The position numbers and the translations under genes are program-made. Below are positions 1,286-62,975 of a stretch of DNA of 64,000 nt, in pieces; the stretch's first letter is position 1; the number at the start of each line of letters is the position of its first letter. Under the pieces are notes generated by a model. That model saw only the letters and a program-made list of their open reading frames with translations. It had not been told where the DNA came from and did no database searches. Where the stretch lies: assembly GCA_947034895.1 (NCBI GenBank), contig OX344762.1:37862760-37926759 (forward strand), in the 5' to 3' direction. Source of the stretch: Rhytidiadelphus loreus (taxonomy: Eukaryota; Streptophyta; Bryopsida; Hypnales; Hylocomiaceae).

Positions 1286-2820
1286 TCATACTATGACCGT
1301 GTATGCTGGCGTCACGTACGTGACAAAGCAGATAGAAGCCAGAACCGAGCCAAAGCCCTTGGTCACATCCGCCTCCTCGATGGTGAAGTCTTCCTCAAAG
1401 CACTCATAGTCGTTCTCGTCGAAACGTCTTTTGAAAATCTCAGTCAAGTCGGTCTTGAGAATCGTTTTTGCAACTTCCGCAGTTGCATGACCCTCGTATT
1501 CTGCCGCATACCCTCCGATGTGGAATTTGTCCTTCTTCCTCCGGATCTGCCAATTATACACCAAGATTATCAAATTATTATGAGCACCATCATGAATGTG
1601 CACTTTTCAACGTCGTTTCAGAAGCCAGCATATTCTAGATCATAAATGCAGACAGTCAGTCTCCTCGACAGATACCCGAACAAAACAATATCTCCCACGT
1701 CATAAAGCTGGCGTTTAAGAGGGAGGGGTGTCCAACTTTTCAGCATATTAAGTTTTTGGTGATACGACGGGCACGACCGAAACCTTCAAACTATCACACT
1801 TTAAAACAGAGCCGATGGAACGAAAAACACCAATATACCTGCATACGGCCAACCCCGGCAGTAATCCGGTCACCATTCGAACCATGCATGACGGCCATTA
1901 TTGATTCCTGTACAGCCCCATGTCTTAAGAATGGCTTTGCCTCCTCTATTGAAACTGGCTCGGCCTCTGGCGGAATAACAGATGTATACTTGACGATATT
2001 AAGGTCTTGGATACCTGCACTCCAGATGCACCTTGCTTAGACGAGCTTCTAGTCTCCATAAGTTCAGTTTCTCTTGAATTTCCAAAAATGAGTTACACCT
2101 GGCTGCGATGAGGTACTGTGTGTGTACGTGCACAAATTGAACTGAAACGGATTAGTTACTTAAAAACTATCACGAAGAGTGTGGAAGAATTTGACTAATG
2201 TGTCAAGAGATTACAGTATGCTTCAACGAAGCATACAAAAGAGTTCGACGAAAGCATACAAAAGAAGAGAATTTGAATGTACTACGATTGTCATATTCGT
2301 TAGTACCTGCTGACTGTCAGAATTCAGTTGCAACACATCGAAGACTAAGCAAGCAAGACACGAGAAAGGGAGGTAAAGTACCGGCATCTTCCAAAGCTAG
2401 GTCGTAGGAGCCTGTCTCCCAAGGATCGGATCCAGCCCCTTGATCCGTCTGACCAAATCCCTTCACCATAAAATAGTGCTTGGGAATGCGAGAGCCGAAC
2501 AGAACGCCATGGCCACCGCAAACCAGCTCCTCCATCTTCAATCCGGTCAATTCATTCCCGTTCTCCAACCACTTCAATCCCAACTTCGGTGGAAGCGTCG
2601 GCTTGGAATCACCTTCCCGGAGATGCTGCACTCCAACCTTTGTTTTCTTCTTACTACCCGCAACGACCACCACGAGACTACTGGTCTCCGATATTTCCGT
2701 TCCGCTAGATTGCTGTGCGGTCAGCGCCAGGTCGACGTCTCGCAATGCCGAATGGCAAGAATACGAGGAGGAGGACGAGAGAGACAATGAACCGCACAAT
2801 GTAGCGGTAGCGAGCGCCAT
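1286..2820 (-). CDS. Pyruvoyl-dependent arginine decarboxylase, predicted plastid-targeted
   Basis: Three coding exons, 2382-2820, 1839-2014 and 1286-1546, join in frame to 291 residues with canonical splice sites. Known for the family (PvlArgDC, Pfam PF01862): a proenzyme self-cleaves before a serine, which becomes the pyruvoyl cofactor, and the enzyme makes agmatine from arginine for polyamine synthesis. Seen: an N-terminal serine-rich, acid-poor sequence starting MALATATLCGSL that looks like a chloroplast transit peptide; 'IPKHYFMVKGFGQTD' (about 112-126), the family's first strand; 'GIQDLNIVKYTSVIPP' (147-162) around predicted cleavage residue Ser158; and 'GYAAEYEGH' (217-225). Spacing from Asn152 to Ser158 equals Asn47 to Ser53 of the Methanocaldococcus enzyme, and Glu221 is the likely catalytic acid. 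The residue before the cleavage serine is Thr, not Ser. The start is the first in-frame ATG; the longer open frame upstream begins with GTG. Plastid location is inferred. Confidence 0.8.
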
Positions 2821-3398
2821 GACGACCCAACGGAATGTTACCAACTCGGTCACCAAGGAATAATTGGACAAACCATGCACAAAGAGGCGCGCGGCTGAAT
2901 ATTGGTAGAAACTCTCACCTGTCCCTTTACCGTAACTCGATCAAGACTACTGCTCAATGAACTCTGAAAGGACATAGAAAATCTACTACCAATGCCAAAT
3001 CTCACCAATTCCGCACACGAAAGTCTCGTTCAAGATCCCCGAGCGAGCAGAAGCAGAATGGATGCGTCACAACAACCACCAAGTAGTCTACAGTCACAAC
3101 AAGTCACAAGGAGAGAGATGAAGTGAAGAAATTCAAGTGCAAATCGTACGAGTTCTTCGAAGCTTTACATGATCTGGACAAGCCAGCATTGCATTTGTGC
3201 TGCACTTGGAAAGGATTTCAGACACTACTGCGGCGACTGGGGAGTGTGATCTTCTGCATGGGATAAGCTCGCTCGAGTACAGTGCGTGGAAGAGAGCACC
3301 GGTGCATGCGAATCGGCATGTGGACTTACCAGATGGCAACTGCAACTGCAGGGTACGGGTTAGCCTGTCAAAGTACGGGTGTTCCCAATAAGGACTAA
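2821..3398. other. Upstream region of the arginine decarboxylase gene
   Basis: Moderately GC-rich, probably promoter and 5' leader of the minus-strand decarboxylase gene. Small open frames on both strands (for example 3197-3391 and 3133-3480) overlap each other, have no recognisable family and run into a transposon, so I do not call genes here. Confidence 0.4.
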
Positions 3399-45800: not shown

Positions 45801-46442
45801 TCCTCTTCATACACAACATTGCTATCATAGAAAGAATACATTTAATTTTCAAAGACAATTATTACACAACTTCTCTTCCAATATGTCTCTTCATTTGTCG
45901 TAGCTCATCTCTAAGTATGCATTAGACATCATCGAATTGTCTTATCTAGTTGTGAAAAGTTTTGTCTTCGGCATCCTGGACTACAAAATTGCATTGTACT
46001 TACAAAGCACGATCCATGGATATGAAACAATAGCATATCTCAAAGTAAATGCAATGCTGATGTTTCCTTTAGAATTTTAGCTTAAATCTTTAACAATATG
46101 GTGGTTACGGTCCATGCGATTGGCATGATGTTATGGAAATTACACCTGTATAACACAAACACACCTTCCACTACCAAAATAAGTAAAATGTCCACTTGAA
46201 GTTCCACGTTGTAATTGTGGTTTAGTACTTCACCTTTCTTGGTTTCTAGTGTCATCTTCAATAGTCATGCATTGTCGACGATGTACTAGTATACCTACAC
46301 ATATAATCCACATTCTCTTATGTTGTTTTCTAAAAGTAATGAATAATATGACTAATGCATATATTGACAATAGGTACTCAATCCGCCTATACTGCTTCAA
46401 CCAAATCAAGGGTGGATGCAAGAAACACCGAACGATTTAGGG
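42877..46442. other. Repeat-rich intergenic DNA left of the large transposon
   Basis: Holds a possible small element with CTAGAGGGCTG/CAGCCCTCTAG inverted ends (about 43,032-43,380), the diverged repeat copy at 43,900-44,420, and AT-rich sequence. Overlapping short open frames at 45,118-45,592 and 46,230-46,440 match nothing I recognise. Confidence 0.4.
43900..44420. repeat. Diverged second copy of the 42.2-42.9 kb element
   Basis: Shares with 42,220-42,876 the blocks 'gaaaatgaatgattatga', 'gggtgtcca(t/c)tgcaaa' and 'gaaaatgagc(t/c)tcaaata', in the same order. The terminal repeats are no longer recognisable. Confidence 0.6.
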
Positions 46443-46490
46443 AGCGTTCAGTGAAAAAACTGATTTTTGCCGTCGAGTACTATGAGTACT
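46443..46490. repeat. Left inverted terminus of the large element
   Basis: AGCGTTCAGTG, then A6CTGATTTTTGCC, then GAGTACTATGAGTACTAC. It aligns base by base in the same orientation with the left end of the miniature element at 62,289 (AGCGTTTGGTCAAAAACTG...AGTACTAGGAGTACTAC) and, inverted, with 61,100-61,174. Confidence 0.6.
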
Positions 46491-46799
46491 ACGAGGAAGA
46501 AAATTGGTGCACTGTGGACCGTTGATCGTTTAGGTGATTCACTGTGTTCTTGCCATGTGTCCTGCAGTACTAGGCGTGGTAATGAATGTGACCACCCAAC
46601 TGTATTTCTTCAACTTCGATGTTGTTGTCTAGTGCTGACACGTGTCAACTTAGGGGATGGATGACTCTACGGATTGTCCAATGGAATGTTCATTCATCCA
46701 GATTGGAATGGATGGAGTTTAGGCTTTCTCTGAAAATTGTTCATTCGTCCTTTTGAATGTCGTCTCTCTCGATTTTGGGCTCCTGTTTGTGCTTGCAGT

Positions 46800-47400
46800 A
46801 GAAGTTAGGGTTTTAGGGTTGCATATTTTTGTGCAGGATTCTTGCTATTTGTAATCTGTGGATGAGCTCTTCTCAGTTTGCTTCCACTGTGTATGGTGTA
46901 TAGTTGTTCAAGGAAGAGGATGAGAGAAGTATTGGAGTTGATGCTCAGTTGCACGTATGCTAGGGTTTAAAGTTTGCCATTGTTGTAGAAAGGTGCAAGT
47001 AACATGGCAGCTTTGACAAGCCACTCGCTAGGAGCGCTAGTGACATTTGCTAGTTCGGAAGCTGCGGTTTAGATGGGTTCGACGTCTGGAAGTGCTTGGT
47101 GCGGCGGTGACGAGTCATTGGCGCGACGTCCGGGAGTCATCGGTGCGGCATTGAAGAGGTGCGGGAATCATCGGTGAGTGAGGTGCAGCAGCCAGTGGTG
47201 CGGTGTTCGGGTCGTCGGGGTTTGCGGTTCTGGGTACTTCTCAACGTGTGACGTGAAGACAAGTCAAATTCGGTGAGTCCTTGCATCCTCTGCCATATTC
47301 TTTCCTGTCACTACTCCTGGACTCAGGCACTTGTTCTCTGCTTATAATTAGAGAAGTACCGAACTACAAGATTTTTGTGCGGTTTAGGGTTTAGGATTCT
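46800..47400 (+). promoter_or_regulatory. Telo-box motifs in the leader of the RING-SET gene
   Basis: TTAGGGTTTTAGGGTT at 46,805-46,820, TAGGGTTTAA at 46,971-46,980, and GGTTTAGGGTTTAGG at 47,382-47,396 lie in the GC-richer leader (about 47,020-47,220). These are the plant telo-box word (AAACCCTA) that is common in promoters of growth and chromatin genes. Confidence 0.5.
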
Positions 47401-47908
47401 AGTTATTTTTCAAATGTGCTGCATATGTCGCCGACTGAGTGCAACGTCCTCTGTGGTCATTTTCTCCAATAGCAGTTACGATTTGAGCACTTCAGACATG
47501 ACGGTCTTTGTACTCACCCATCCCTAGAATTTTGGTAATCCTTCCATGCTTGGCTTTTTCGCTTTATATTTTTTTGAATGTCGTGGACATCTCCTGTGCT
47601 ACCGTTGTGTTTCTATACTAAGTCAGTTGTCATTCAATCCTCTCATGTCTAGTTTTTAAAGATAACTGCACTTTGCTAGTTGGAGTTGGAGTTCTAATAG
47701 TTTGTTGTACTTGTAGTACATGTGATAGTACTAGGAGTACCTTTGGAGGTTTTCACATGCCATCTTTAGTACTGTCCAATACTACGTCCTCTGCATTGTT
47801 TGATGTATTAGACAGGACTTCTATTTGCACTACTGCCATCCGTTTGTGGAATGCCCCACTGATCTAATTTTTTCCCCCAGCTTGGGCGATTGTCTTCCAT
47901 TTTGGGGG

Positions 47909-50294
47909 ATGGGGAAAATGAAGAAAACTGTTGTGCGTCCACAACCTTCTTCAGAAAATACAAGCCACAGTCTTCAGGGTTCGGATGAAAGTGGAGGCGA
48001 TATGCACAATACTGCAGCTACTTATGTCAAGCGGAGCACTGCAACGAAGGACAGCTCATCAAAAGACATGTCCAGGATGCTGCCTCTGCCAACATCAAAA
48101 GTGCCATTGGAGAAAAGAAAAAGAAAAGTCGTGCAATCCACCTCCTCTGCCTTGACTGGTGTTGCTAGATTGGCAAAAGAAAAGCAGCCCACTGCACGGA
48201 AGAAGAAGTCTACATCTGCTCCTGGTACTCCGAGTTCCTCGTCTGGGACCTCCGGTGCTGCTGCTGACGACGCCACGCCAAAGGAGGGCAATTCAGACAT
48301 TGACGGTGACAGCGATGACTACCTTGATACCAGCGCAGTGGCTTCCAAACGACGTGCGCAAATCAAGAAGATGAAGCGAGAATTCAGTGAATCTGAATGC
48401 AAGAAGCAACTGGCGTCCTTGAAATCGGAAGAGAAGCGCCCCCCTCCGTCCATCACTGCAGAGGTTTTTGCCTCCAAATTTGGACTTACAAGTGAAGGAA
48501 TCAACAGCCACAAATTCAAGATTGGGAGACAAATCACCCTTGAGGAAGTGGAAGATGTCTTCGGGGAAGAGAGAGCCAGAAATGGCTTCTTTTTGGCAGA
48601 GAAATTGAGTTTCGATCTCCGCAGACAAGCCGAGGCGCTTTATTGTTTGTGCTATCAAAGGCCTCATGTACCTACGCATGTGGCTAAAGAGTTTGCCATA
48701 GGGTTTGTATTGGATTGTGTCCAACACAAGAGTGTGAACTGGGCGGAATTTGCAGCTAGAACTAATGTAGCACAGTGGAAGTCCTACTCTCGACGTGTGA
48801 GGCTATGGATCCAGCGCTTGGCTACTTTGTTGAAGCTGCCAGTGAGTGATGTCTTCGAGAAGGAAGGCTTCAACCGAAATGGAAGACTTGAAGTTGATCC
48901 GGGCGTTGCAGGAACTTTGGAATCTCCTATCCCTATGCATGGTGGATTGAAGAAGGGCGTGCACAGTGAGAGTTATGTTCAACATGCTAAAAGCACTGAC
49001 CCTGAAAACCTACTTGCCAGGTATTTGTCCACTTCCCAACTTCTTTGTTTCTTGTCTGTCTTGCAAGTCAGTACGACTACTTCCCGTTGTAACACTAAGT
49101 AGTGCCATTCAGTCTCTCTGTGTATAAGGGTGGTCATGCGATTGAGTACTGTACTACAACAATTTTGTAGTACTTCGCTTCTATGCCTTTAACACTAGCG
49201 TTCCAACATGTGTAGTTCCTACAAATAATAGTACATGTTGCTAATGGTACAACACATCCGATGGAAACTAATTGTATGTACTTGCAGTACTATATTGCTT
49301 TATGTACATTTTGGAACATAACTTGTACTGTTGGGTCATGGCTATTGTATTTTACTGGAGCATTCTTTGCTGTAGGTGTACTATTCTTTATTTGTATGTG
49401 TTACATGTGCCACATCCAATAGTCTTATGTACTAGACATTGTCATTTTTTGCAGAAGTTTGACTGTACTATTAATACTTTGATGTACTTCATATATTTCG
49501 TGCTGGAGCCAGTACTGTCGTAGTACTAGTAAAGGTCGACTTCAGTCATATTCGGCTTCATACAGTACTTTGCTAGATTACTACTCCCTCCGTCCCAAAA
49601 TGATCTTTTTGTTGGCCATCAAAATTTGTCCCAAAATGATCTTTTTTCTATGACGTGGAGGAAGAGCCCGCCAAAATGAAACACATGTGGCTGTACAAAA
49701 ATTGCACCCTGATGAGCAAGGATGCTTTTTTCCTCAAATTAGAAATAGTCATTGTGGGACCAGTCACTAACTCACTGTACACTTTCCATATACTCCAGTT
49801 ATAACAATTATAGCACAACGGGTAATGTGCTTGGGCTTGAATAGTGCATGCATCTTAACTAAATTACTGTACAAACCACTCGAAATTATTGCCACGGTAT
49901 ATTCAACCATCCTCTGTCAGTGACAAGTGTATGTCGTGAAGCGCATACACTGCAACTCACACCACGGGAATTCCAACTCACACCGCGGGAACTCCAACTC
50001 ACACTGCGGGAACTCCAACTCACAGCGCATGAAGATAAATAGGTTCAACAGACACGCAGGAACTGTAAAATTGAATGGCTAGCGGTGCTCCTCAAGAAAG
50101 GTCTCCAAAACTCACATTTTGAATCAGGATTGTCACTGTCACGTCCTGTCCGTCCGTCAGGATGTCCGGATGGACGTCAGGATTCAACCCTGGCGTCCGT
50201 CGGGATTACAAAAAAAAAAAAAAAAAAAATTTTTTTTTTTTTTTTGACGACTTGGCTGTTCACTGGTTTGCTCCAGGGTGCCAAACTGGCTGTC

Positions 50295-50332
<38 letters not shown>

Positions 50333-53300
50333 TTTATTTTTTTTTATTTATTTTTATTTTTTGGGTTGACGGCAATACCGACGCGTCATGACGCGTCAGG
50401 ACGGACGCGTCATGACATCCGGACGTGAAAAGCCCACGTCACGTCCGGATAGACAACCCTGTTTTGAATCTGTAGAACTTTAATTTCATAATGAATTTGA
50501 AGCTCAAATTTTGAGTATTGTACAAGAGCATCACATTTTATTTATACCTCAAAACCAAATTAAAAAATATTTATTTTTGACCTTAATCTAGAACATTTTA
50601 GCAAACAGGAAGATCATTTTGGGACGGAGGGAGTAGTAGTTTATACTAGTACTACACATGAATGGTAATACACTTAGTCATTTGATGGGTCTTTCCGTTT
50701 TTTACTCATATGCAGTCTTTGTAGCTACAATTGTATTGAGTACTATTAGAAGGTATTACATGTATGTAGCATGGAATTAGTTGTATTCACATCTTACCAT
50801 CCATCTATGGTACAGGGAAATGGAAATCAGGATTCTTGTGCAGAAGTTAGAAGCGAAATTGAAACGCTATGAAGAAGAAGTTAATGAAAAGAAGGTGAAG
50901 GTTGTACAAGTTGGTGTGCAGTGGGAGGCTTGCTTTCAACTTGTTGACCAATTCAAGTCTTCATTGACTGAAGCGGGCCAACAATGCAGTGTCTCTGCAA
51001 GAGAAGAAGAAATCGCAGCAGCTACTCAACTACCAGGAATTGGACCCATCTTCAAAATGTACTACTCCAATGTCAAGAAACTCAGAGTCTTTGGTGACAC
51101 AAAGGCTAGTTTGGAATTGGAGCTCCAGAAATCATTAACCGCCGTGGAAGGCCACAACAAGCGTCTTGCGGCATTACAAGCTTATTTGGTGGAGGTAGTA
51201 GCAGGGAAGGATGCTGTATCAATGCGGCCTTTGCCTTCAAGCTACAACAACGACTTACTGGTGGACAACACCAGTGGCCCAGTGCTACCCTCCCTTCTTC
51301 AATGCTGCATTTGTTGTTCTGGATTTCCCTTGTGGGATGTTATTGTGTGCTCTTGCCAGCATGTTTATCATCCTTGGTGTGCTGCGCAATGGTTCAAAAA
51401 CAATGTCTTCTGTTCAGTGCCGCAGTGTGGACCCGTGCCTGAGCAGTGGTACAATAGTTGGGGATTTGGACAGTATGGCAAACTACTTGAAGGAAGTATT
51501 GGCGACCAACTAACAAGTGGCATACCGGCTGATACTACTGCGGAATTGATGCCAGCATCTGTGCAAAATGATTTAGGTAATGCTGGCATAGGTCTTTTGG
51601 CCATTTTGAAATGGTGTCGTCTTTAAATTTTTTTTCCCATAGGTCATGTTCCCTTCCTATTTTTTGTGTGACCCAAAGGTTTTGTTTTAATACAATGTTA
51701 TCCTCACCATGTGACATTATGACTTGGAATCTGCTTTTCCCTCATGTGTTTCCTTTGGGTTTGCTTTCATATTCTCCTTGCAATTTCAGTAGTAGATTCA
51801 ACTGCCAACATGTATTTTTATCAATATTGCATGCATTCCTAGTACTACATGATACAAGTGTTTTACATCTGGTACTGGGTTTTTATGCAATGCCTTATGT
51901 AGGAGTTATTATTGTATGTGGTTAGTGTCTGGTCTTGCATACACGGGATTCTTAGAACTCCACTATTGGAGAGTGCTCTTTATTAATGGCTCAAGTCATA
52001 TCTTCGTTGCCACTTTCATCGTATCCACTCGCTATGGCAATCTCAGTGACTGCTGCATTTGGGTAAACCATAAGTCTAATAACAAGTACCTCTAGTACTA
52101 TTCACATGCAACTTAGTACTACATTCAGTCTGAGTTAGTGTGCATCTTCTATGTGAGTCACTTGTCTAGCATTTTTCAGAACAATTTTCACAATAGCCAT
52201 ATCTAGGGATATGGCTTGTTCTACTTTTCTTATGATACATGGTGGCAGCTATATGAAAGTCTGCTTTTGTTGCTACAATTTCTTATACCACTGACTTTCA
52301 AATGTGCAAGGTTCTCTATAATACCCGAAGGTGCTCCCAGTATGTCTGCTTGTGACAGCACCGTGTCTAAGTGTTTAGAGGAAGATAGAGATGTCATCAT
52401 CCCTAAATTATCGAAGGTTGGCATGGAGGGTTCTGATGTTGCTGCAATACCATCTCTTACGGAGATAGAGGGGTCGTACACTCCATTTGGGTCCCACCTG
52501 TCTACCCCGTCCACCAAATTGAAGGAAAAAGGCACTTTCACATCTATTGTGGAAACTTCCCCTCCAGCAATTGAGGATCCTAAGAGTACTGAGGCGTCCC
52601 ATGTAGTACTCGAATTTCCTGTGGCAGCAACTGTACCTGACTTGTCAGAGAATAGCGCGGTCCATAGGTCTTCTCTTGTACAGATTGCAGGAGTGGAAGA
52701 TGTCCATACGGTTCATGACCATCCGGCATTAGAAGCTTCTGACTTCTTTGATTTAGAGAAGAACGACCCACTTGTACAACCCGCAGTTCAAGCTCCGAAA
52801 TTGCTCGATTCATTGCATATTGGACCGGATAGGGACATCATTATACCGTTAGTGGTCCGTGCCAAGAAAGTGAGTTTCAATTTTTAATTTTTTTTCCCAC
52901 AAAAATGCTTCCTAAACACTTTTTGCAATCTAAATTGTCTCAAGTTTTGAAGTGTTATTGTAGGATGTGGATTACTCTACAGTGCTACATGACTTCATTG
53001 ATAGCATTTTTCTCTACTTGCCTTATACTCTTGGTCTTGCAGTCTATGGAGGCACAAACTAGTATATTACTAGTGTCTCTTTCAAACAAAGCTTCTCCTC
53101 TTTCCGAGAAAGCTTCTCCTCCTTCCGAAAAAGCTTCTCCTCTTCAAAACAAACTAGGTGCTGCCAGTCCTGAAGACCCGTACTCTTTAGCGTTTCCACG
53201 GGTATCGAAGCGTCTGAAGAAAATAGTGGACACGTCGTTGATTTTGACATCCCGCACTAGAGAGCAAAAAAGTGACAACAATTGTGCTAGTGAATTGCCC

Positions 53301-55939
53301 AACGTATCAAGCCCAACGAAGTCTATTGTGAAAGGCAGTTCTGGGTCTCCTACTGGTATGAAGCCTGACGACCTTCAATGCTTTTTTTCCAATATCCGTG
53401 GCTTTTCTTGGTTTGTAATTATAGCAGAAACTCGTAGTATACATTGATGGCATTGTTAAAAATACTAGAGACTGAAATCCTTGTACTAAGTTTTCCTAAT
53501 CGTATGTGAATGTAGTATTGTACCTTATGAAGCTGGATTCGTTTCAGGAAAGGGAGCAAAGAAAGACACTGTTATAGAGGACGAATCTCCTACAAATACG
53601 TCTACACGAGTTTTGCGAATTCGGCATACTGTAGGCGAGATTGCTTCATCAAGTCCAATTGTAGGTTCAGGGTCCAAGAACAACAAGGTGTGTACCAAAA
53701 AATAAATGATGCCTACATTCCAATGCTCTCATCCGTGTGGACACAGTTTTGTGGTTGTAGTTTGGATAGCTGTCCTCTATGTCTACTTCTCTTCATGTAA
53801 CTAAAGAGAACACTTAGAATCCATCATGGGGCCCGCGGGTCTGATTAGGGCCCACGGGACTCCCATGGGCCTAAGCTATGACTGGTGGCGTCAGCTCACC
53901 GAAGTGGCCCCAAATAAGTACTTGTAGTCGTGGAGGGCAGTGACGTTTTCTTGGATATGATTGTGGGCCAAGGGAGTGCTTCGAGTTCCATGGCAAAACC
54001 GTGGGACCAAGCCGGGATTTCTGTCTTGACTCTTGAGGAAGCCATTCCGGCCCATGGCCTCAACATTAGTCATGCGTCTTCATAGAGGAGCCCGGTTAAA
54101 GAACCGGCTTCTAGGATCCCTAGTTGTCCTGCACAATTTGGCAACAGGGTATGTTTTATTAACCTAGTAGTACAAGTACATGTTCACAATCTCTGTTTCT
54201 TTGAATCTTGAGTATCTACTCACAAGCAACTACAGCTGAATTTACCGAAAAGAAATTGGCGACTTTGTATACTACATGGTGGCCTGTGTATGATATGTTG
54301 TTGTGAACAGGGACTTCTACATTCCAGTCACATTGACGTCTCTAGAGGTCTAGAAAGCATCCCCATCCTCGTGTCTAACGGTGATGCCTCACACGTTGTC
54401 AATTTTTTTGATAACTCATACACATATGTCCGTTCTCTTCAAATCCACCCTTCTGTAAGGCTTGAAACTCTGCCTGTAACTACTCTGAGGAGCACGGCAG
54501 TGGGTGGCCAAAGGGATGGCACATGCACAGAGGTGATTAGTGATTGTTCATATCAGCTTCAAGGAGAAGACAGACATTATGTCCAAGATGGCCTTCTGCA
54601 TCCTCGATACATACTTCAGGTATGTGTCAATAAATGTGTCATAGTGGATTTCCATTTGTTTGCAAATGATTTTTTTTTCATATCCATAGAGTACTGGCAG
54701 TGCTTAGAGCACTACGTGAATTCCCCCCCTTCCAACTGTAGCCTGCCCTTAAGCAAGAATGATATGTGTAGCATTGAAAATTCTTGTTTTAATAGTATAG
54801 ATCTTAAATGCTATACTTCTACTTCTAATACTACATGTAGTACTTTTTAGAGTAGTACTTGTAGCACTGTTAGTACTTCTTATAGTGTTACTTGTATTAC
54901 TGCTTGTACTACAGAACTCCTTCTAGTAATGCTTCTAGTACTACGTCATAGTACTAAATGGCTAGAAATTGTGAATCTCTACAGTTTCTACGAAGACGAA
55001 GTGGCTATTCATCAAGATTAATTTATTACACTACCCAGTCCAAGTGCACGGAGCAGGAAAATGGACGGTGTGTCGGACATGTTCCACTGGACTACATAAA
55101 TGAGTGCAATACTAATTGTCTTTGTGCAACACACTGTGACAACCGGGTAGTGCAGAAAGGAGTGACTATAAAATTGGAGGTGAGGGCATGACAGTACAAG
55201 TTGAAGTTACCTTGTAGTGTAGTACTAGAAGTCACAAATGTGGAATTTTTGACTCACTGCCATTTTGCATGTGTGTACAGGTATTTTACGTGAACAAGTG
55301 TAAAGGATGGGATGTTCGTACATTGGAAGCTGTACGGTGTGGGTCTTTTGTTTTTGAATATGCAGGAGAAGTGGTCAGTAATGCAGAATTACTGAAAAGA
55401 GGAGATAGGACAAAGTATGCTCTTGCTTTGGACGCAGACTGGGAATCAGAGCTAGAAAAAGACGATGATTCCCTACTGTGTATTGATGCAACGGAGAAGG
55501 CGAATGTTTCCCGATTTTTGAATCACAGGTATGATTCTCGGGAAAGACATACACTGTATTCTATTCGTTTTCTCTTTTCAAGTCATTGGTCTTCAATAGC
55601 TACAGTAATGAATTTGCATGGACTGCGGATGCAGATGTGGAGACGCAAATTTGATGGACATGCCAGTGTGGGTTGAGAACAGAAGCCCTACTTTGTATCA
55701 TGCAAGTTCTGGAACCCACTGTTGAATACTGTCACTTTTTCTTGCATAAACATTTTGATGTATAGGAACTTTTGAAACAGTATTGACTCTCTTGAATTGT
55801 GCTTGTTCAGGTTGTTGTTTTTGCAAATCGTGCTATTCAAGCAGGGGAAGAACTGACTTGGGACTATGGCATAGATTTTGATGAAGAATGTTCCACGTTC
55901 AAATGCAATTGCGACAGCATGATCTGTAGAAGAGCATGA
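47909..55939 (+). CDS. RING-H2-like finger fused to a SUVR-type SET histone lysine methyltransferase
   Basis: Ten exons join in phase to 1,270 residues: 47909-49020, 50816-51576, 52331-52869, 53043-53355, 53548-53687, 54311-54619, 54985-55179, 55281-55528, 55635-55701, 55811-55939. The start is the first in-frame ATG after a probable leader-intron acceptor (47,880). Order: Lys/Ser-rich N-terminus with a KRKRK nuclear signal; a helical region of unknown family (about 185-335); a coiled coil (about 371-410); a RING-H2-like finger at 534-575 (C-x2-C, C-x-H, H-x2-C, then C-x4-C); a low-complexity Ser/Pro region with short ASP-EK repeats; the second half of a pre-SET zinc cluster ('ECNTNCLCATHC'); SET (about 1127-1254) with GWDVR, FEYAGE, FLNHRC and ELTWDYG; post-SET CxCx4C. 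The NHRC form is typical of SUVR1/2/4-type H3K9 enzymes. Missing: the canonical first pre-SET cysteine cluster and the WIYLD domain. Intron 9 starts GCAAGT (GC-AG). E3 ligase and methyltransferase activities are inferred. Confidence 0.75.
49584..50633. mobile_element. Stowaway-type MITE in intron 1 of the RING-SET gene
   Basis: Termini CTCCCTCCGTCCCAAAATGA and the exact complement, with TA at 49,582-49,583 and 50,634-50,635, the signature of Stowaway (Tc1/mariner-derived) elements. At 1,050 bp it is long for the class because another element is nested inside it. Confidence 0.85.
50125..50461. mobile_element. hAT-type MITE nested inside the Stowaway element
   Basis: Termini CAGGATTGTC and the complement of CAGGGTTGTC, flanked by an 8-bp duplication TTTTGAAT at 50,117-50,124 and 50,462-50,469, as hAT elements leave. 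The interior is unusual: CpG-rich GACGCGTCATGACGCGTC palindromes separated by long poly-A/poly-T and TA tracts (50,210-50,360). Confidence 0.75.
53688..54310. other. Intron 5 of the RING-SET gene, GC-rich insert
   Basis: Positions 53,825-54,120 are markedly more GC-rich than the surrounding introns ('ggggcccgcgggtctg', 'gggcccacgggactcccatggg') and lack GTACT words except one. It may be an inserted repeat or gene fragment. A 60-codon open frame on the minus strand matches nothing I recognise. Confidence 0.4.
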
Positions 55940-56454
55940 TGTCCGGAAGTCTACGAGTCTAAGAAATTTACAGTTTCAAGGAAGAATTGGTGCTAAGTAT
56001 GTTAAATGGCTTTGGTACTTGTATACTTGAAGGACACACTGTATAATAAGTGTAATATATTTACTACACATGAAGATAGCAAAAAATTCAGAAGTGTAGA
56101 AAGTGTAGAAATTCAGAAGCAAGAAAATTATATGTAAATTGTGTTCAAATATTTTTGCAGTACTATGAAAGTGTTTTTGCAGTATTATGAAAATGTTTTT
56201 ACAGTACTTTGAAAATATTCTCTGAGTATTATGAAAATACTCTTGCAGTATTAGTAGTATTGTCTAATACTATTTAGTACTTCTAGTACTATACGTACAA
56301 AGGATGTTTGCTGACCGAGTATTGCCGTTGAAGAAATGCACGTTAATATTAGCATCTTCGTTTTCCTTTGTCCTATTAAAACATGTGCGCTGATTGAAGG
56401 CCGTTTTGTATATTTTTGTCGTGAATGCTGAAAGGAAATACATATCAAGATTAT

Positions 56455-59400
56455 TTACAAACTATCTAGGGTACTGTTGATTACATCTACAGTTTCATCA
56501 GGTAGTGTGTATACACGATGGCTGCCTTTGACACGATGCTGTCGAGGCAACATTTGAAATTTGCAGGCAAGGACTATGGTTGCATCGACGTGTGCAATTT
56601 GAGAATTAGCCAAGTACACATAGTTCTGAAGATTTGGACGACCCCATTTTTGGTAGTATGTTCCAGATATGATGGAGTCTCCAACTTGAAAGTGACCTCC
56701 CCAAGTGCAGGTGAAAGCTTCTGTTACTACTTGTTTTGGAGCCTGGCACTGTAGTATGTAGAAAGATACACCTTCATCATTGCCAGCAGCTGCTGGAACA
56801 GCGAAATTATCCCCTACTTGTACCAAGTCAGCCATTCCATCTTCACTATATTCCCAATCCCAAATGTCATCCCCTTCCTCAACTTCAATTGTGGGAAGAA
56901 TAAAGCCCGCAGTATAGGGTTGAATCTTCAAAACTTTCCAAGCTTTCACGTACTCATCATTTTCACAATGGGTGAAATCTTCTTCTAAGCATGGACCACA
57001 AAAGCAAGATAGTTCTCTGACAAGAAGCTTGGTTGGGTCATTTTGATCTGGGGCAAACACAAAATGTAGTTTAGACGAGCCAGGTAGTTTGTTGCAAGAA
57101 TGGAGGTTTGTGCGGTCAACTTCGGCAGTCCCTATGTAATGGAAGTATCGGAACGACCTGCACACAAAACATACGCAAACATGGAGGGGCTTGTCAGTGG
57201 GAGACTATGAGTGATTCATACATTGAACATATACCCAAAAATAGGAATGCTTCCAGAATTCGAAGAACATTTGACAGCACAATTTGCAAGGGTGAGGCAA
57301 CTAAGTGGAATACATAGAAGTAATGAAGGATGCATGATAACCTAACCCGGTCTCCAGTGTTGGAAAATTCTCCACTTAATGCTGCATCTAGAAATGTCAC
57401 ACAATCACGAGCATTTTGCAACGTTGTAAGTGGATGAAGGAGTTGTTCTGATCGCAATGTTCTCTTGACCACTGCACCAGCACCATCCCATTCACCTTTT
57501 CCATGGCTCGAGCCAAAGAAATTCCACAGCATTTTACAGCCGCCTGTCAGTGATGGATATCTGGAACAAAAAAACATGAGGAACAACACTAGTCATAACA
57601 AGCAGTAGAAGTATTGTGTTAGTACAGATAGCTGAAGGAATGCAAAGAGGCATACTCCACATTCAATACTATATGAAGACTCCTCAGTACCTGCAGTACT
57701 ATGTGAGGTGTGTTTAATACAGTCCCAGTTGTTAATGTAAGAGCACTTTTCTTAAAGAAGAGGTTGTAGGATTTCTTGCCTTGCAGCAAAGTAAAGAGCT
57801 CGACTCCCTTTGAATTGACCTGCACAGCCATCACTGAAAACGCAATGCATGTGAGGTATGAACTTGTTTGATGTGAACCAACGCCAATGCAACAATGCAA
57901 CATCAAGCAGTGTTGCACGAAAAGTGTGTCATGACTCCTGTCATCTGAGATGTAATAGTGTGTCTCCTTGACGAGGCTAGCCATAGCATCACTATCCTCA
58001 GGTACTGATGTCATGTAATATGTAACTTGAACCAGAATAGTGATTTGTGTTGAGTTGAAATACATCAATTGAATTTCATTCTGGACTTGGAAAGTGTTGT
58101 TCTCAGCAAAGTTGATGTGAGAAAGAATGGTATGCTGTTGCAGACACACACGAAGTAGCTTTGCTTGGTTTGATTGCCAACGGGCCTCAAAATTGTGTCG
58201 TATGAAACGTTGCACAGTGGGTTTGTAGAAATTGAGAAACTCTGAGAATGGAGTCGTCTTGGAAATCTCTGTGATGCGTTTCTTCGGTATACCCTCGACA
58301 ATGGAACCGACAACCTCGTACTGGAATTGCTTCCAGTTGATGTTGATGCCAGGAACATCCACCATCTCATATGGGCAAAGCTTCATGGATGCAACACCAC
58401 AATCGGTACATGCTCCTAGTAGGCATCCTGGGCGATGGAATTCTGCATCATCTACTTTTGGACAGAGTAGAGACTCCCACATTGCTGTAACGCCACAGAA
58501 GCGACTGTCTCCCACCTTACAATGGCCGCCGTTGTCAATACCACAAACCACACATTCACAATTGCAGTGGAGAATGAAGTGGGCACCAGTCAATGGATGT
58601 CTGAATGCATTCAACACCTCTAAAAGAAACAGTACCTCCACATGATACCGACAGCAACATACGTTACGTTCTTTGCATTTGATAACAAAGAAAGGGCGTA
58701 GACGGTCGAAAGATCGGTACATGATTACGCATTATGGATGAGCTACAATGAAACGGTCGTACAAGCCCTTCTGCAAAATAGCACTTCGTCCATCAGTAGA
58801 AGCACAAATGATAATGTTGTAACATGCAACGTAACAAGAACTAGAATTAAATGAAAATGAAGAATGCATTTATCATCAGTGTTGAATACTAACAGTGTAG
58901 AATCAATATTCAGTATACGAATGTGGAGGCACACTAAGTAATATGAAGTATAGACAACTGTTTATAGTGCACAAAGATGCTATTATTTGGTACTACAAGA
59001 TAATAAATAGTATTAGAAGATGTGAGTGAGTACTGTGAAGTATTAGATACTTATTGAGTACTATACAATATTAATACTGAGTAGTACCTCTACTTCTTGC
59101 AATCTAAAGTACTGCAAACGGTGAACCCCATGCACACAGGTGGAAGGTTCCAAGGCTCTAGTCCTACGTAGAACAGGATATGAGTATCGTCTCTTATAAT
59201 TATCCGCTAACGAGCATAAATACTGACAACATGTGCCCTTAGTACTGTACAACGAGTACCAAATATACATGAGTCTTACTAAAAAATATGAACAGGACTA
59301 CTGAATATAGTGTTCATATTAGTACAGTAGTAAGACATACATGAGCACGGATTGTAAATACCATGAATGAACATCAGTACTGTGCAATACTGTGCAGTAC

Positions 59401-60784
59401 TATGCAATACATGGAAATCCTAAGACAACAGAGAAGGTACTATGAGAACAAAAGATAAGGACTAAGGAAGAAGACATGTATTATTGTACTGAAAAGTACC
59501 AGTTCCGCAGGACCCTGAATAGCTACAACGCAAATGCAATGTAATGAAGTACGGACTGTACTACGGGATTGTAGGTAATATTGTTGATATTATCCTTCAG
59601 AAGTTTCTGGGTGCTCCTAGTGCTTGAAGTACACAAGACATATTTAAAATGCACTACTACAATTCGGTTGCTGACTGGTAAGAACACTTTTAATACTAAA
59701 GACAGAAGGAAACACTTGTAGTACTTGAGCAGGAACTAAGGCAATACTGATGAGGTTACCAGTACTACAGAATACTTGTAATGAACTATAGAGCAAAAAA
59801 GTAGGAACTACAGCAGTAGCATGTAAGTACATAGAAAGTTCGGAACATAGTTGGGCACATGATCTGCTTATGAGACATTGCTTACCAAGGTAAATGTACA
59901 ATATGTTTTGACAAACGCAATGGAAAACATAACCAAATTTCAAAGTATTAGCAAGCAAGCACACATGTAAAATTCAAAATAGCAACGTGTGAGTAAACTT
60001 GAGTCTCCATTAGAAGATGTGCAGGATGTGTGTCATACACATTGCAACCTAGGCGCTTCCGGTGGATGTCCTTCCTGTTCGAGCTGACTCGACTCTCTTC
60101 AGTCCACCAAGTCGTGACTAGAAACTTAACAACATCAGAAATGCCTCCTTCTCTTTGTTTTCTGTGTGGAACATTAAATCTGGCACTTGATGTCGCATCG
60201 GCGTTGCGCAGGCATTCAACAGCATCTTCCAAATTAGCTTTCTTCATACCTAAAATTCTGTGAAATCGACTGAAATCTGCATCAATCTCCGAAACAATCG
60301 CTTCCAAGATCGAACGCTTTCTAGCCAATTTACCTGAGCTATGTGGAAGTTTCATTCGCTGTAATTCTGCTCTTAGGTTCAACAGGATCTGACGTTCAGA
60401 TCTAGCATCCTCCAACAGCGGAAAATACGCGGGTAGGAGCGGGCGCACCTGTACGTTCCTGAACACCCTTCGCAAAATAGCAGCGCGCAGGTCTACGTTG
60501 TCTAAGAGAAGAAGGTCATGAATCAAGCCATTGGAGATGCGGTCTGCATGGCGCTTCACTGTGCTTTGATATACACGACGTTCATGACTTCCATCACTGT
60601 CTTCTAAAGCGTCCGCCACGAAATCCCGCCTGGCACGACAATTTCGCTGTTGCTGTGAAGCTCTACGGCGCTGATCCTCCAGTCGTAAGTTTCTTTCTGC
60701 TGCCCGTGTGCGTGGACCTGCTCGAACTTCTACAGGGCTACTTTTATGGCGCCTGCGCACCGATGGATTGACGGGATCGTCCAT
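56455..60784 (-). pseudogene. Transposase-like (DDE/RNase H-type) gene, disabled
   Basis: Four exons, 59999-60784, 57780-58770, 57342-57560 and 56455-57157, would give about 896 residues. Seen: a basic N-terminus; a 'VVKFLVTTWW..ES..SSNRKD' helix region; cysteine pairs around 'CLLGACTDCG'; 'NFAENNTFQVQNEIQ' (about 58,090-58,115); 'YISDDRSHD' (57,941-57,960); 'SDGCAGQFK'; 'GSSHGKGEWDGAGAVVKR' (57,481-57,530); and a C-terminal 'LSCFCGPCLEEDFTHC'. From memory, (D)FAEN, ISDD, SDGCAGQ(F/Y)K and GS.HGKG..DG.GA..KR in this order mark an uncharacterised transposase-like family frequent in animal genomes. Lesions: in-frame TAA at 58,732-58,734, and an 8-bp tandem duplication at 57,885-57,900 that shifts the frame before SDGC. 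The Asp of DFAEN is Asn here. Intron 2 starts GCAAGA (GC-AG). Alternative: a shorter protein from ATG 58,722 would still hit the frameshift. Confidence 0.65.
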
Positions 60785-60940
60785 AACACGGTTCTGAAGT
60801 ATTGTTCAACTATAGACAGCTGACACGATCCTCATTGGTAGACAATACAAACTACAAAGGCCATCATCTCACAGAAGGAGTCGACCAGCAAGCGCAACGT
60901 CGACATCTCTCAGAATTCATGGATTTGCGACACTGAGCTC

Positions 60941-61174
60941 CGAACCCTAAGCCGCCGAACCACGCCTGAACCGCAAGTTCAAAAGCGCCGTCGATCACAG
61001 GAAAAGTCGCCACTGTCAATTGCAAGCTTAACTGCTAGTCCTAATTAAGGACCCGTGCAGGCCACGTGGAAACTAGTTTGCAGAGGTGGGCCCCGGAGAC
61101 AGTACTACATGGTACTATGAGTACTATACAATCCTACACTAGGCCAGCACCTCAGTTTTCCACTGGAAAAGGCT
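60941..61174. repeat. Leader of the transposase-like gene and right inverted terminus
   Basis: A telo-box (CGAACCCTAA at 60,941-60,950) lies about 150 bp upstream of the minus-strand start, mirroring the left side. GTACTATGAGTACTA at 61,111-61,126 and CTCAGTTTTCCACTGGAAAA at 61,151-61,170 match the complement of the left terminus, spaced further apart. Confidence 0.5.
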
Positions 61175-61189
61175 TTTTTTAGTTTTTCA

Positions 61190-61705
61190 TTTTAAAAAAC
61201 AAAACAAAGCAAAACTAAAAAAAACTAAAAATTGGCCATTTCTGTAATTTGAGTGGGGATCACAAAATAGTACCTTTCCAAGTCCTAAACTATGTAGGAT
61301 GTCCAGAAAACTAGAGGCAACACACCTCTGTTTGCACGCAGGTGGACGACACAAGAATATGTGAAATGAACTTTCCTTTGGTGGGCACATGCCCTTCTAT
61401 TGTGTCAATAGCCCACAACAATCCTAGACGTACATCATAATTTTTGGATGCTCCACAGTACTAAAAACCCCTAAAACGCAAAGTGTGACAAATTAGGTAA
61501 ATTACAATTTAATTAAAGGTTATTTTTTCAAAATTTCTCAAAAATAAGGAATCTGAGGACTTCCAAGTTAGCCATCTCCAATAAAAATTTCAAGTACATG
61601 GACTTCATTTCCCAAAAGATATGGCGAATGGCAACTCCGTCATTCCAGTTGTGATGCCAAATAGTACCAGTGTTTCTTGCATCCACCCTCAACCCCTATT
61701 TCAAT
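61190..61705. repeat. Dispersed repeat, copy 1
   Basis: About 515 bp, repeated in the same orientation at 62,490-62,975. Shared blocks: 'actaaaaattggccattt', 'cctttggtgggca(c/t)atgcc', 'gcaaagtgtgacaaattag', 'ccaactccgtcac/a...', 'tttcttgcaatcacc'. A third, diverged copy lies at 31,318-31,900. The large transposon ends immediately left of this copy. Non-coding. Confidence 0.65.
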
Positions 61706-61781: not shown

Positions 61782-62288
61782 TTGCAAGGACCGAAGAATG
61801 AATTGGAGTCCCAAAAAATCTTCACACTCATGACTGCAAAGCATGAGATGTTTTTAGAGGATTTGGATATTATAGATGGTAGGGACCTCATGACGCCGGA
61901 CAACAATAAGTGGATTAGGATTTTAGAGGAAGTAATGCGTGTTGGCTTTTCACCCTATGTTTGTGATGGACCTGCATGCAAGATAAAATGGAACCAACTC
62001 ATACCAGATTACAAAAAAATTGCAAAATATTTTTGTATAATGGAGAGAAGTAAACCTAAATACTGAGATTTGAGTTCAAATGAGCGGAAGGCCAAGGGTC
62101 TTCCTAACCATTTTGCTTAAGACATTTTTCCTACCATCCATGAGTGGTAGTGGCACTTGTCCAACAATCCAACCCCCTCATATATGTGATTCGTTTGCAC
62201 CAGATGACTTCAACTACGAACTACATGGATATGACAAAGATCATAGAGATGAAGAGGGTGATTGCAAGAAAGACCAAACAATTTTCGT
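61782..62288 (+). pseudogene. Decayed Myb/trihelix-like transposon ORF
   Basis: Reads 'DNNKWIRILEEVMRVGFSPYV' (about 61,900-61,962), then 'CKIKWNQLIPDYKKIAKYF', a trihelix/Myb-like DNA-binding pattern often found in plant transposon ORFs. After a TGA (62,064-62,066) the same frame continues 'DLSSNERKAKGLPNHF', hits further stops, and a shifted frame gives 'TIQPPHICDSFAPDDFNYE'. It is cut off at the miniature element at 62,289. Non-functional. Confidence 0.5.
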
Positions 62289-62454
62289 AGCGTTTGGTCA
62301 AAAACTGTGTTTTTTTTGCTCAGTACTAGGAGTACTACAAAATGGAGCAATCTCAGCCATTGATCTGAAAAATCAACGGCCAATAGTATTTTTTAGTACT
62401 TTATAATACTGAAACTGTACTACTTAAAAAAAATGACAGTTTGTCACAAAAAGT
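62289..62454. mobile_element. Miniature relative of the 14.7-kb transposon
   Basis: 166 bp with inverted ends AGCGTTTGGTCAAAAACTGT and the complement of ACTTTTTGTGACAAACTGT, followed inward by GTACT words on both sides (AGTACTAGGAGTACTAC; AGTACTTTATAATACTG). The centre 'cagccattgatctgaaaaatcaacgg' is itself an imperfect palindrome. The left 50 bp align with 46,443-46,490. Target duplication not recognisable. Confidence 0.6.
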
Positions 62455-62489
62455 AGATAAAATTAAGTATAAATTAATAAAAATTAGAA

Positions 62490-62975
62490 ATCATGAATAA
62501 AAAAACTAAAAATTGGCCATTTATAAAGACTTGATAGTGATTACATTTCACCAAAAACTAGAAGTTGAAACCATCATGAAAGTTTGGAGTGCTATGCACA
62601 AAGGACTCCTATTTGCATGCATGTTGAAGACAAATAATTGTGTTTTTTTTAATTCCCTTTGGTGGGCATATGCCTATCTAGTGTGAGAATAGGCCACAAA
62701 AAAGTCAAGTGAACATCATGTTTTTTGGATACTGCATAGTACTAAAAAACCCTAAACCGCAAAGTGTGACAAATTAGCTAAATTGATATTTAATTATAAA
62801 ATTATTTTTGAAAATTTTTGAAAAATAATAAATCTCATGTTTTCTGAGTTAGCAATCTTCCATAAAAAGTTCAAGTCCATTGGCTTCAATTTCCAAAAGT
62901 TATGGCCAAAACCAACTCCGTCACTCCAATTTGTGACGCCTCATAGGACCGGTCTTTCTTGCAATCACCCAAGAC
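62490..62975. repeat. Dispersed repeat, copy 2
   Basis: Second copy of the repeat at 61,190-61,705, same orientation. Sequence to its right up to 63,475 has an open frame (62,959-63,294) without any recognisable family and is probably transposon-derived. Confidence 0.65.

What the first reader, a model, noticed from the sequence alone, without database searches (positions are those of the whole stretch)
46443..61174. A large DNA transposon that appears to carry its own histone methyltransferase gene
Two convergent genes sit between related inverted termini: an intact RING-SET protein and a transposase-like gene. A 166-bp element 1.1 kb away has the same termini. Seen: terminal sequences, gene structures, motif content. 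Known: SUVR-type SET domains act on histone H3K9, and SETMAR shows SET genes and transposons can become linked. Inference: the methyltransferase is cargo or a helper that lets the element control chromatin at its own copies or at host genes.
Basis: partly seen in the sequence, partly recalled or inferred. Interest (0 to 1): 0.92.

Follow-up and report, generated by a model that had tools for sequence, protein, structure and literature searches.

The report
Plant transposons carrying histone methyltransferase genes
This stretch is a 15-kb jumping gene, apparently from a plant genome, that carries beside its own transposase a gene for a chromatin-marking enzyme of the plant SUVR type; many related copies in the same genome carry the same pair, so the enzyme looks like a long-standing working part of the element rather than a chance passenger.

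Summary
Confirmed and extended. Nine copies with both ends found all hold transposase, RING and SET; 7 of 9 TSDs are perfect. Genome-wide, 55 of 110 transposase loci found have a SUVR-type SET exon within 15 kb, all convergent; chance gives about 1. Transposase and SET trees share the same families, and SET dN/dS between families and subfamilies is 0.14-0.32, so the methyltransferase is an old, selected component. It is part of a larger protein (novel N-domain, coiled coil, weak RING match, SET); some relatives keep RING without a detected SET. The transposase core is integrase-like; Sola membership is unproven. The window copy looks dead (frameshifted transposase, GWD in the SAM motif). New here: AGTACT accumulates in this family's non-coding DNA (42 versus 4.6 expected, first-order; 40 versus 11 in non-coding, second-order) and stays dense in a sister subfamily although positions turn over, recalling the VANC/VANDAL address motif. 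Self-targeted chromatin writing is inferred, not shown. Prior art: SET genes in Phytophthora HarbingerS/MuDR.

The parts
46406..46409 (.). left target-site duplication TCAA
   Evidence: same 4 bp at 61689-61692
46410..46428 (+). left terminal inverted repeat GGGTGGATGCAAGAAACAC
   Evidence: perfect inverted copy at 61670-61688; found in 10 of 10 other 5' ends fetched, one with 1 mismatch (two of the ten, C1_67 and contig C445, look like one locus)
46410..61688 (+). whole element, 15,279 bp
47918..49020 (+). RING-SET gene exon 1: basic leader and N-terminal domain of unknown function (domain about 48425-48880)
   Evidence: homologous N-domain in L135 and L140, 28-29% identity
50816..51576 (+). 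RING-SET gene exon 2: coiled coil and RING finger
   Evidence: RING matches below Pfam cut-off; coiled coil judged by eye; 148 genome matches
52310..54619 (+). RING-SET gene exons 3-6 (52310-52869, 53043-53355, 53548-53686, 54310-54619): linker without Pfam match
   Evidence: gene model
54985..55179 (+). exon 7: pre-SET cysteines
55281..55528 (+). exon 8: SET core; SAM motif reads GWD in this copy
   Evidence: Pfam SET E 1.6e-6 on this exon; GWG in 38 of 41 element SET exons
55635..55940 (+). exons 9-10 (55635-55701 with a GC donor; 55811 to stop): end of SET, ELTWDY, post-SET CxCx4C
56460..60782 (-). transposase gene; exons about 60782-60000, 58617-57780, 57560-57347, 57157-56460, plus a possible small exon at about 58770
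   Evidence: boundaries read by eye; relatives
57885..57900 (-). 8-bp tandem duplication (TTGCATTG x2) that shifts the transposase frame
   Evidence: present here, absent in the 9 other close loci
61670..61688 (-). right terminal inverted repeat
61689..61692 (.). right target-site duplication TCAA
62256..62970 (+). 715-bp non-autonomous relative (MITE), 20-bp TIRs GGGTGATTGCAAGAAAGACC, TSD AAGA; its last 362 bp are 77% identical to the element's 3' end
49584..50633 (.). later Stowaway-like insertion (CTCCCTCCGTCCCA termini, TA duplication) in intron 1 of the RING-SET gene; not part of the element
   Evidence: inverted repeat I1; boundaries read by eye; the name Stowaway is recalled

Best explanation
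The window holds one decayed copy of an autonomous DNA transposon that encodes two proteins: a transposase with an integrase-like core, and a convergently transcribed accessory protein made of an N-terminal domain, a coiled coil, a RING finger and a SUVR1/2/4-type SET methyltransferase. SHOWN by sequence: the element moves as a unit with 19-bp TIRs and 4-bp TSDs; the accessory gene is inside it; the SET domain has descended with the transposase through several families and bears purifying selection. INFERRED: the accessory protein is addressed to the element's own non-coding DNA (candidate site AGTACT/TAGTACTA, reader domain unknown) and writes H3K9 methylation there, with the RING finger supplying ubiquitylation that may stimulate the SUVR-type catalytic domain. 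Net direction is open: I lean slightly to moving element chromatin out of the host's H3K9me2-DNA methylation loop (for example by pushing to H3K9me3), about 0.35, over self-restraint of transposition, about 0.30. For 'element-encoded chromatin writer acting mainly on its own copies' I give 0.6.
Against: No expression, chromatin or biochemical data. The window copy itself is probably dead. 16 of 41 fetched SET exons hold a stop. SUVR1 and SUVR2 showed no activity in vitro (PMC7218100 passages), so the SET may be structural. With only 8 representatives more than 20% apart the distance correlation falls to r 0.37 (128 of 5000 permutations as high). Branching within families, and the deep order of families, is not the same or not resolved in the two trees. 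55 of 110 transposase loci have no SET found within 15 kb, and 15 of those keep a convergent RING, so SET is dispensable in some relatives; at 60 kb 4 of 64 nearest SETs are not convergent. The motif is confined to the window's family among loci tested; F6 and L140 show none comparable, and one of two 15-kb flank controls also had a hexamer above its simulations (ACGCTG, 8 versus 1.1, z 6.6). With a second-order model the L012 count (10) is reached in simulations (maximum 11). What binds the motif is unknown; it could be the transposase. RING matches are below Pfam cut-offs.
Confidence: 0.6

Rival explanations
1. SET is cargo that serves the host or nothing: a plant SUVR gene was swept into a transposon and is carried passively.
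For: 16 of 41 fetched SET exons hold a stop; the window copy has a damaged SAM motif; half of the transposase loci lack a detected SET.
Against: Co-descent with the transposase across families, dN/dS well below 1 between families, the same convergent order in 55 of 55 paired loci at 15 kb, and fusion into a conserved RING protein. Two host SUVR genes exist separately.
Confidence: 0.12
2. The RING-SET protein is a self-repressor: it lays H3K9 methylation on the element's own copies to limit transposition, lower the host's cost or steer integration into heterochromatin.
For: SU(VAR)3-9-like enzymes usually write repressive H3K9 marks (PMC4260354, start of abstract in the listing; PMC7218100 passages); dispersed non-coding motif.
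Against: Self-restraint is hard to keep by selection among copies (argument, not data); no insertion-site or copy-number test was made here.
Confidence: 0.3
3. The protein is anti-silencing: it pushes element nucleosomes beyond H3K9me2, or ubiquitylates host silencing factors, and so breaks the H3K9me2-DNA methylation loop, a histone counterpart of VANC and of transposon-borne TET/JBP enzymes.
For: SUVR4 turns H3K9me1 into me2/me3 and binds ubiquitin in vitro (PMC7218100 passages); VANC21 localises to a non-coding motif, YAGTATTAY, in its own elements (PMC5735166 passages), and the window family has a similarly dispersed AGTACT/TAGTACTA motif; TET/JBP genes are carried by many fungal DNA transposons (PMC12730594, abstract and sections).
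Against: No data on which methylation state is made; the WIYLD domain that binds ubiquitin in SUVR4 was not found here.
Confidence: 0.35
4. Assembly or search artefact: convergent SET and transposase genes are neighbouring host genes in segmental duplications, not a transposon.
For: Some small contigs repeat large ones (C430 has the same match scores as C3:46902k; C445 shares its 5' flank with the C1_67 copy).
Against: Different flanks, co-terminal ends and per-copy 4-bp TSDs, plus a MITE with kindred TIRs and its own TSD. Segmental duplication gives none of these.
Confidence: 0.02

Closest known systems
HarbingerS and MuDR elements of Phytophthora encoding a SET histone lysine methyltransferase (Kojima and Jurka 2014, Repbase Reports)
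   Same: DNA transposons that incorporated a SET methyltransferase gene
   Different: Oomycete hosts and Harbinger/MuDR transposases; here a plant-like genome, a transposase without Pfam match, 4-bp TSDs, and a SUVR-type SET fused to a RING protein. The original entries were not seen; known only from the citing passage in PMC12730594.
Sola superfamily
   Same: 4-bp TSDs, DDD transposase expected, some elements over 15 kb, reported in the moss Physcomitrella (PMC10741241 passages)
   Different: No Sola transposase sequence could be compared here; the Sola passages read mention no SET or RING gene.
SETMAR/Metnase
   Same: a SET domain linked to a DNA transposon; Metnase's transposase domain is among the fold matches
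   Different: SETMAR arose when one Hsmar1 transposon inserted downstream of a SET gene (PMC6326780, start of abstract in the listing); here SET and transposase are separate convergent genes in multi-copy mobile elements.
Plant SUVR1/2/4 methyltransferases
   Same: pre-SET, SET and post-SET; 43-50% identity to the 120 relatives listed; with SUVRs against SUVH at 100/100
   Different: No WIYLD domain found; N-domain, coiled coil and RING instead; element SETs lie outside the host and angiosperm SUVRs (88/85).
VANC/VANDAL21 anti-silencing
   Same: a short motif in the element's introns and terminal non-coding regions (PMC5735166 passages)
   Different: VANDALs are MuDR-type (PMC12730594 passage); binding of the motif by an element protein is shown there and only inferred here.
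TET/JBP-carrying fungal DNA transposons (KDZ, hAT, EnSpm and others)
   Same: epigenetic enzymes as transposon components (PMC12730594, abstract and section 4.2)
   Different: Dioxygenase acting on methylcytosine instead of a histone methylation writer; other transposases.

Membership tests
Class II TIR DNA transposon | TIRs and fixed-length TSD at independent insertions | tested here: met
   19-bp TIRs; 4-bp TSD perfect in 7 of 9, one mismatch in 2 of 9
Class II TIR DNA transposon | DDD/E transposase with RNase H-like core | tested here: met
Sola superfamily | 4-bp TSD | tested here: met
   definition from PMC10741241 passage
Sola superfamily | sequence homology to Sola1/2/3 transposases | not testable with these tools
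   no Repbase protein at hand; no Pfam match at E<=10
Sola superfamily | DDD catalytic triad | tested here: inconclusive
   three conserved D fit, but no Sola alignment was available
PIF/Harbinger (HarbingerS) | 3-bp TSD | tested here: not met
   4-bp TSDs; 3 bp stated in the abstract of PMC2213677 (listing)
MuDR (including Phytophthora SET+ MuDR, VANDAL) | 7-12 bp TSD | tested here: not met
   4-bp TSDs; 7-12 bp stated in PMC10741241 passage
SETMAR | SET and transposase fused in one protein | tested here: not met
   two convergent genes
SUVR1/2/4 methyltransferases | SET domain in the SUVR clade, not SUVH | tested here: met
   element plus SUVR against SUVH 100/100 (L002 has an SRA domain); drawn with midpoint root
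SUVR1/2/4 methyltransferases | WIYLD domain | tested here: not met
   no PF10440 match at E<=10 in the spliced 1274-aa protein; 119 of the 120 listed SUVR relatives carry it
Active H3K9 methyltransferase | intact SAM motif and catalytic residues | tested here: inconclusive
   GWG in 38 of 41 element SET exons but GWD in the window; ELTWDY and post-SET cysteines present in the window; no assay
RING E3 ligase | RING zinc-binding pattern | tested here: inconclusive
   zf-RING_2 E 0.0019 on exon 2, below cut-off; zf-RING_16 E 0.027 on the whole protein; F6 RING also sub-threshold

The most novel reading that the evidence does not exclude
A lineage of plant DNA transposons carries a sequence-addressed chromatin-writing system: a fused RING-SUVR methyltransferase that recognises a short palindrome (AGTACT in this family, other sites in other families) accumulated by the element in its own introns and termini, and marks its own copies. 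It would be a histone-writing counterpart of the VANC/VANDAL system, maintained through the diversification of about seven families.
Probability: 0.33. Interest if true: 0.93.

Novelty: new variant of a known kind. Interest (0 to 1): 0.82.

Why it matters
Transposons are usually the targets of H3K9 methylation. Here several families of one transposon lineage bring their own H3K9-type writer, fused to a RING protein, and selection has kept it. That reverses the usual picture and makes a question testable: can a transposon gain by writing the mark that normally silences it, either to restrain itself or to leave the DNA-methylation loop? The family-specific AGTACT accumulation gives a concrete candidate address, so binding and targeting can be tested directly. 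If it holds, it would also be a compact natural system for sequence-guided histone modification.

Tried and rejected

KDZ (my first thought, from memory): not pursued. Pfam gave no family for the transposase frames or the full protein at E<=10. Distant relatives show only sub-threshold DUF7869 in the scan (2 of 10 proteins), and no paper in the library holds the word DUF7869.

N-domain structure: the model from a 3-row alignment was poor (pLDDT 51) and was not used.

TIRs of the F6 family: not found in 15.5 kb with a TSD-constrained search, nor by comparing copies (a 5' boundary is seen, no convincing 3' partner). Only the architecture of F6 is claimed.

Single versus repeated capture of SET: the tree splits the 12 element SETs into two groups unresolved against SUVR; one clade is not rejected (p-AU 0.18). 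The shared N-domain-RING part in the window, F6 and L140 argues for one ancestral accessory protein, not for when SET joined it. Three long-branch rows (L001, L004, P0006), present in the tree, were left out of the tree.

Foldseek gave no confident match over the whole transposase model (best E 5.5e-4, NurA, TM-score about 0.1); the fold statement rests on the VIA second look.

Empty site, TIR pattern count and N-domain survey did not complete.

Literature: no paper on a plant transposon with a SET gene was among the rows listed (15 of 22; 15 of 70; 6 of 6; 8 of 8; 10 of 12), PMC open subset only. Bao et al. 2009 and Yuan and Wessler 2011 are not held; Repbase Reports were not seen.

The random control was rerun on the larger SET list and the full protein was scanned for WIYLD.
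Full report
WHAT IS THERE. The window lies at C2:37862760-37926759 of an unnamed 407-Mb genome in 489 contigs, five of them of 51 to 94 Mb. Host SUVR and SUVH genes and named transposase kin in the moss Ceratodon, the liverwort Calypogeia and the alga Klebsormidium point to a bryophyte-like plant; the species is not known. The right part of the window holds two convergent genes. On + is a ten-exon gene with a reading frame of 1274 aa: a lysine-rich leader, an N-terminal domain without Pfam match, a coiled coil (by eye) with a RING finger (sub-threshold), a long linker, then pre-SET, SET (complete, E 1.5e-17) and post-SET. On - is a transposase gene of about 850 aa over at least four exons.

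TRUE ENDS. Comparing twenty end regions showed that similarity runs on past 46443 and 61174. Perfect 19-bp inverted repeats, GGGTGGATGCAAGAAACAC, sit at 46410-46428 and 61670-61688. In nine copies both ends were found, the window included. Seven have identical 4-bp flanking duplications (window TCAA, C1_18 TTTC, C1_41 ATCT, C1_92 AAAT, C2_57 AGTG, C4_128 CCTG, C4_49 CTAA) and two differ at one base (C1_67 TGTA/TGCA, C3_114 AGTG/AATG). All nine hold a transposase, a SET and a RING match between the ends. Spans run from about 14 to 69 kb; in C4_128 another family's transposase and RING match lies inside, so nested insertion explains at least that one.

STATE OF THIS COPY. The transposase frame is broken by an 8-bp tandem duplication absent from the nine other close loci. 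The SET frame is open, but the SAM-binding GWG reads GWD; 38 of 41 element SET exons hold GWG, one has a stop there and one fragment does not cover it. A Stowaway-like insert sits in intron 1. The window copy is therefore probably inactive. 25 of the 41 SET exons have no stop.

A GENOME-WIDE PARTNERSHIP. The transposase exon has 112 matches. I used 111 rows; the row left out and two others belong to one locus, C4:2999k, so these are 110 loci. Pfam SET has 101 matches. 48 of 111 transposase rows have SET within 15 kb, all convergent; random placement gives mean 0.9, maximum 3 of 200. An element-specific SET query gave 162 matches, the listing cut; 92 rows chosen from it (mostly the SET-core exon) merged make 115 SET places. 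Against these, 56 of 111 rows, 55 of 110 loci, have SET within 15 kb, all convergent; at 60 kb 64 rows have one, 60 of them convergent. Random placement against the same 115 places gives mean 0.9, maximum 5 of 1000. The RING exon has 148 matches. Of 110 transposase loci, 37 have both SET and convergent RING, 18 SET only, 15 RING only and 40 neither within 15 kb; three nearest RING matches are not convergent. Some small contigs duplicate large ones (C430, C445), so counts are slightly inflated; searches score only the best candidates, so they are also lower bounds.

ONE OLD UNIT. I fetched SET exons for 40 paired loci and used, with the window, 40 of the 55 paired loci that had both SET and transposase exons, plus transposase exons of 10 of the 55 unpaired ones. 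Distances correlate (Mantel r 0.895, n=40, largest of 2000 permutations 0.23), although with only 8 representatives more than 20% apart r falls to 0.37 (128 of 5000 as high). Maximum-likelihood trees recover the same groups in both proteins: the window's 13-row family; groups of 4, 2, 8, 6, 3 and 4; and the 7-row and 21-row unions; branching inside families and the deepest order are not the same or not resolved. The ten SET-minus rows form one group (93/84); gain and loss of SET cannot be told apart without a root. SET dN/dS is 0.14-0.32 in the 20 of 55 comparisons of families or subfamilies that had dS under 2 and over 60 codons (six of them among subgroups of F4, one within F1). Within nine groups it is 0.13-0.74, near 0.5 in six, as expected if copies decay after insertion while active lineages are selected (crude counting method, near-saturated dS in part). 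Transposase values are 0.06-0.23 in the 7 of 21 usable comparisons. A distant family member (F6, L135+L136) has the same N-domain, coiled coil and RING (24% over 494 aa, E 3e-26, filters off), a SET and a 664-aa stop-free transposase frame. A SET-minus element (L140) has a 548-aa stop-free frame with N-domain, coiled coil and RING but no SET found in its 9 kb; its RING is by eye and by the match, not by Pfam.

ORIGIN OF THE SET. The SET region's best relatives are plant SUVR1/2/4 proteins, 43-50% identical; 119 of the 120 listed (of 448) carry the WIYLD domain. The element protein shows none. The host has two separate SUVR genes (L143, L144). In a tree with host SUVH genes as the other side (L002 has SRA), host and angiosperm SUVRs group together (88/85) and the 12 element SETs used lie outside, in two groups (98/98 and 81/71); one element clade is not rejected (p-AU 0.18). 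This argues for an ancient capture, not a recent one from this host.

A POSSIBLE ADDRESS. The most enriched hexamer of the element against the left flank is AGTACT: 42 copies in 14,228 bp against 4.6 expected by a first-order model (maximum 10 of 60), 40 of them outside modelled exons; the 46-kb left flank has 11 against 9.4. With a second-order model on the 7,859 non-coding bases, GTACTA (59 versus 16.6, z 10.4) and AGTACT (40 versus 11.0, z 8.7) stand above the best simulated z of 4.7; of the controls, one 15-kb flank piece had a hexamer at z 6.6 (8 copies), F6, L140 and the host SUVR loci had none above their simulations. In sister locus L018 only 1 of 9 sites is kept where non-coding identity is 55%, yet it has 11 sites (expected 1.6 first-order, 3.1 second-order, maximum 8 of 200): density persists while positions turn over. 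L010 and L012 have 10 each; for L012 the second-order simulations reach 11. The MITE has 4 in 715 bp (0 of 500 simulations reach it, both models). Loci of F3, F5, F6, F7, one SET-minus element and host genes have 0-0.7 per kb against 2.6-2.9; F2 and F4 were not tested. VANC21, an anti-silencing protein of VANDAL21, localises to YAGTATTAY in that element's non-coding regions (PMC5735166, passages). The parallel is in layout; which protein reads AGTACT here is unknown.

MECHANISM. Shown: a mobile element whose SET gene descends with it and bears purifying selection. Inferred: the RING-SET protein is brought to the element's own copies and writes H3K9 methylation; SUVR4 makes H3K9me2/me3 from me1 and binds ubiquitin in vitro (PMC7218100, passages), so the RING could feed the SET. 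Direction, self-restraint or escape from the H3K9me2-DNA methylation loop, is undecided. SUVR1 and SUVR2 showed no activity in vitro (same passages), so a non-catalytic role is possible.

NOVELTY. SET genes in HarbingerS and MuDR transposons of Phytophthora are prior art (cited in PMC12730594, passage; originals not seen). The present lineage differs in host, transposase, TSD, SUVR origin, RING fusion and demonstrated age of the partnership. I file it as a new variant of a known kind.

Noticed in passing
46410-61688 and 62256-62970: AGTACT/TAGTACTA accumulates in the non-coding parts of the element and in the MITE, but not in the left flank or in the other families tested.
   Followed up: yes
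L140 (C2:9337600-9346600): A relative whose accessory gene keeps N-domain, coiled coil and RING but has no detected SET: SET has been gained or lost relative to RING within the lineage.
   Followed up: partly
49584-50633: Stowaway-like insertion (CTCCCTCCGTCCCA ends, TA duplication) in intron 1 of the RING-SET gene, with long A and T runs inside.
   Followed up: no
2320-2940, minus strand: Lone 207-aa open frame with a sub-threshold match to pyruvoyl-dependent arginine decarboxylase (E 5.5e-4).
   Followed up: no
L136 6010-6999, minus strand: 330-aa open frame with a weak SWIM zinc-finger match (E 0.063) near the F6 element; it may be another element.
   Followed up: no
L143 (C2:48967000-48972500) and L144 (C2:50716500-50721500): Two host SUVR genes, SET exons about 66% identical to Amborella SUVR2, with no transposase row nearby.
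   Followed up: partly
window 55702 and about 57779: A GC-AG intron donor (GCAAGT) in the SET gene and a likely GC donor in the transposase gene.
   Followed up: no
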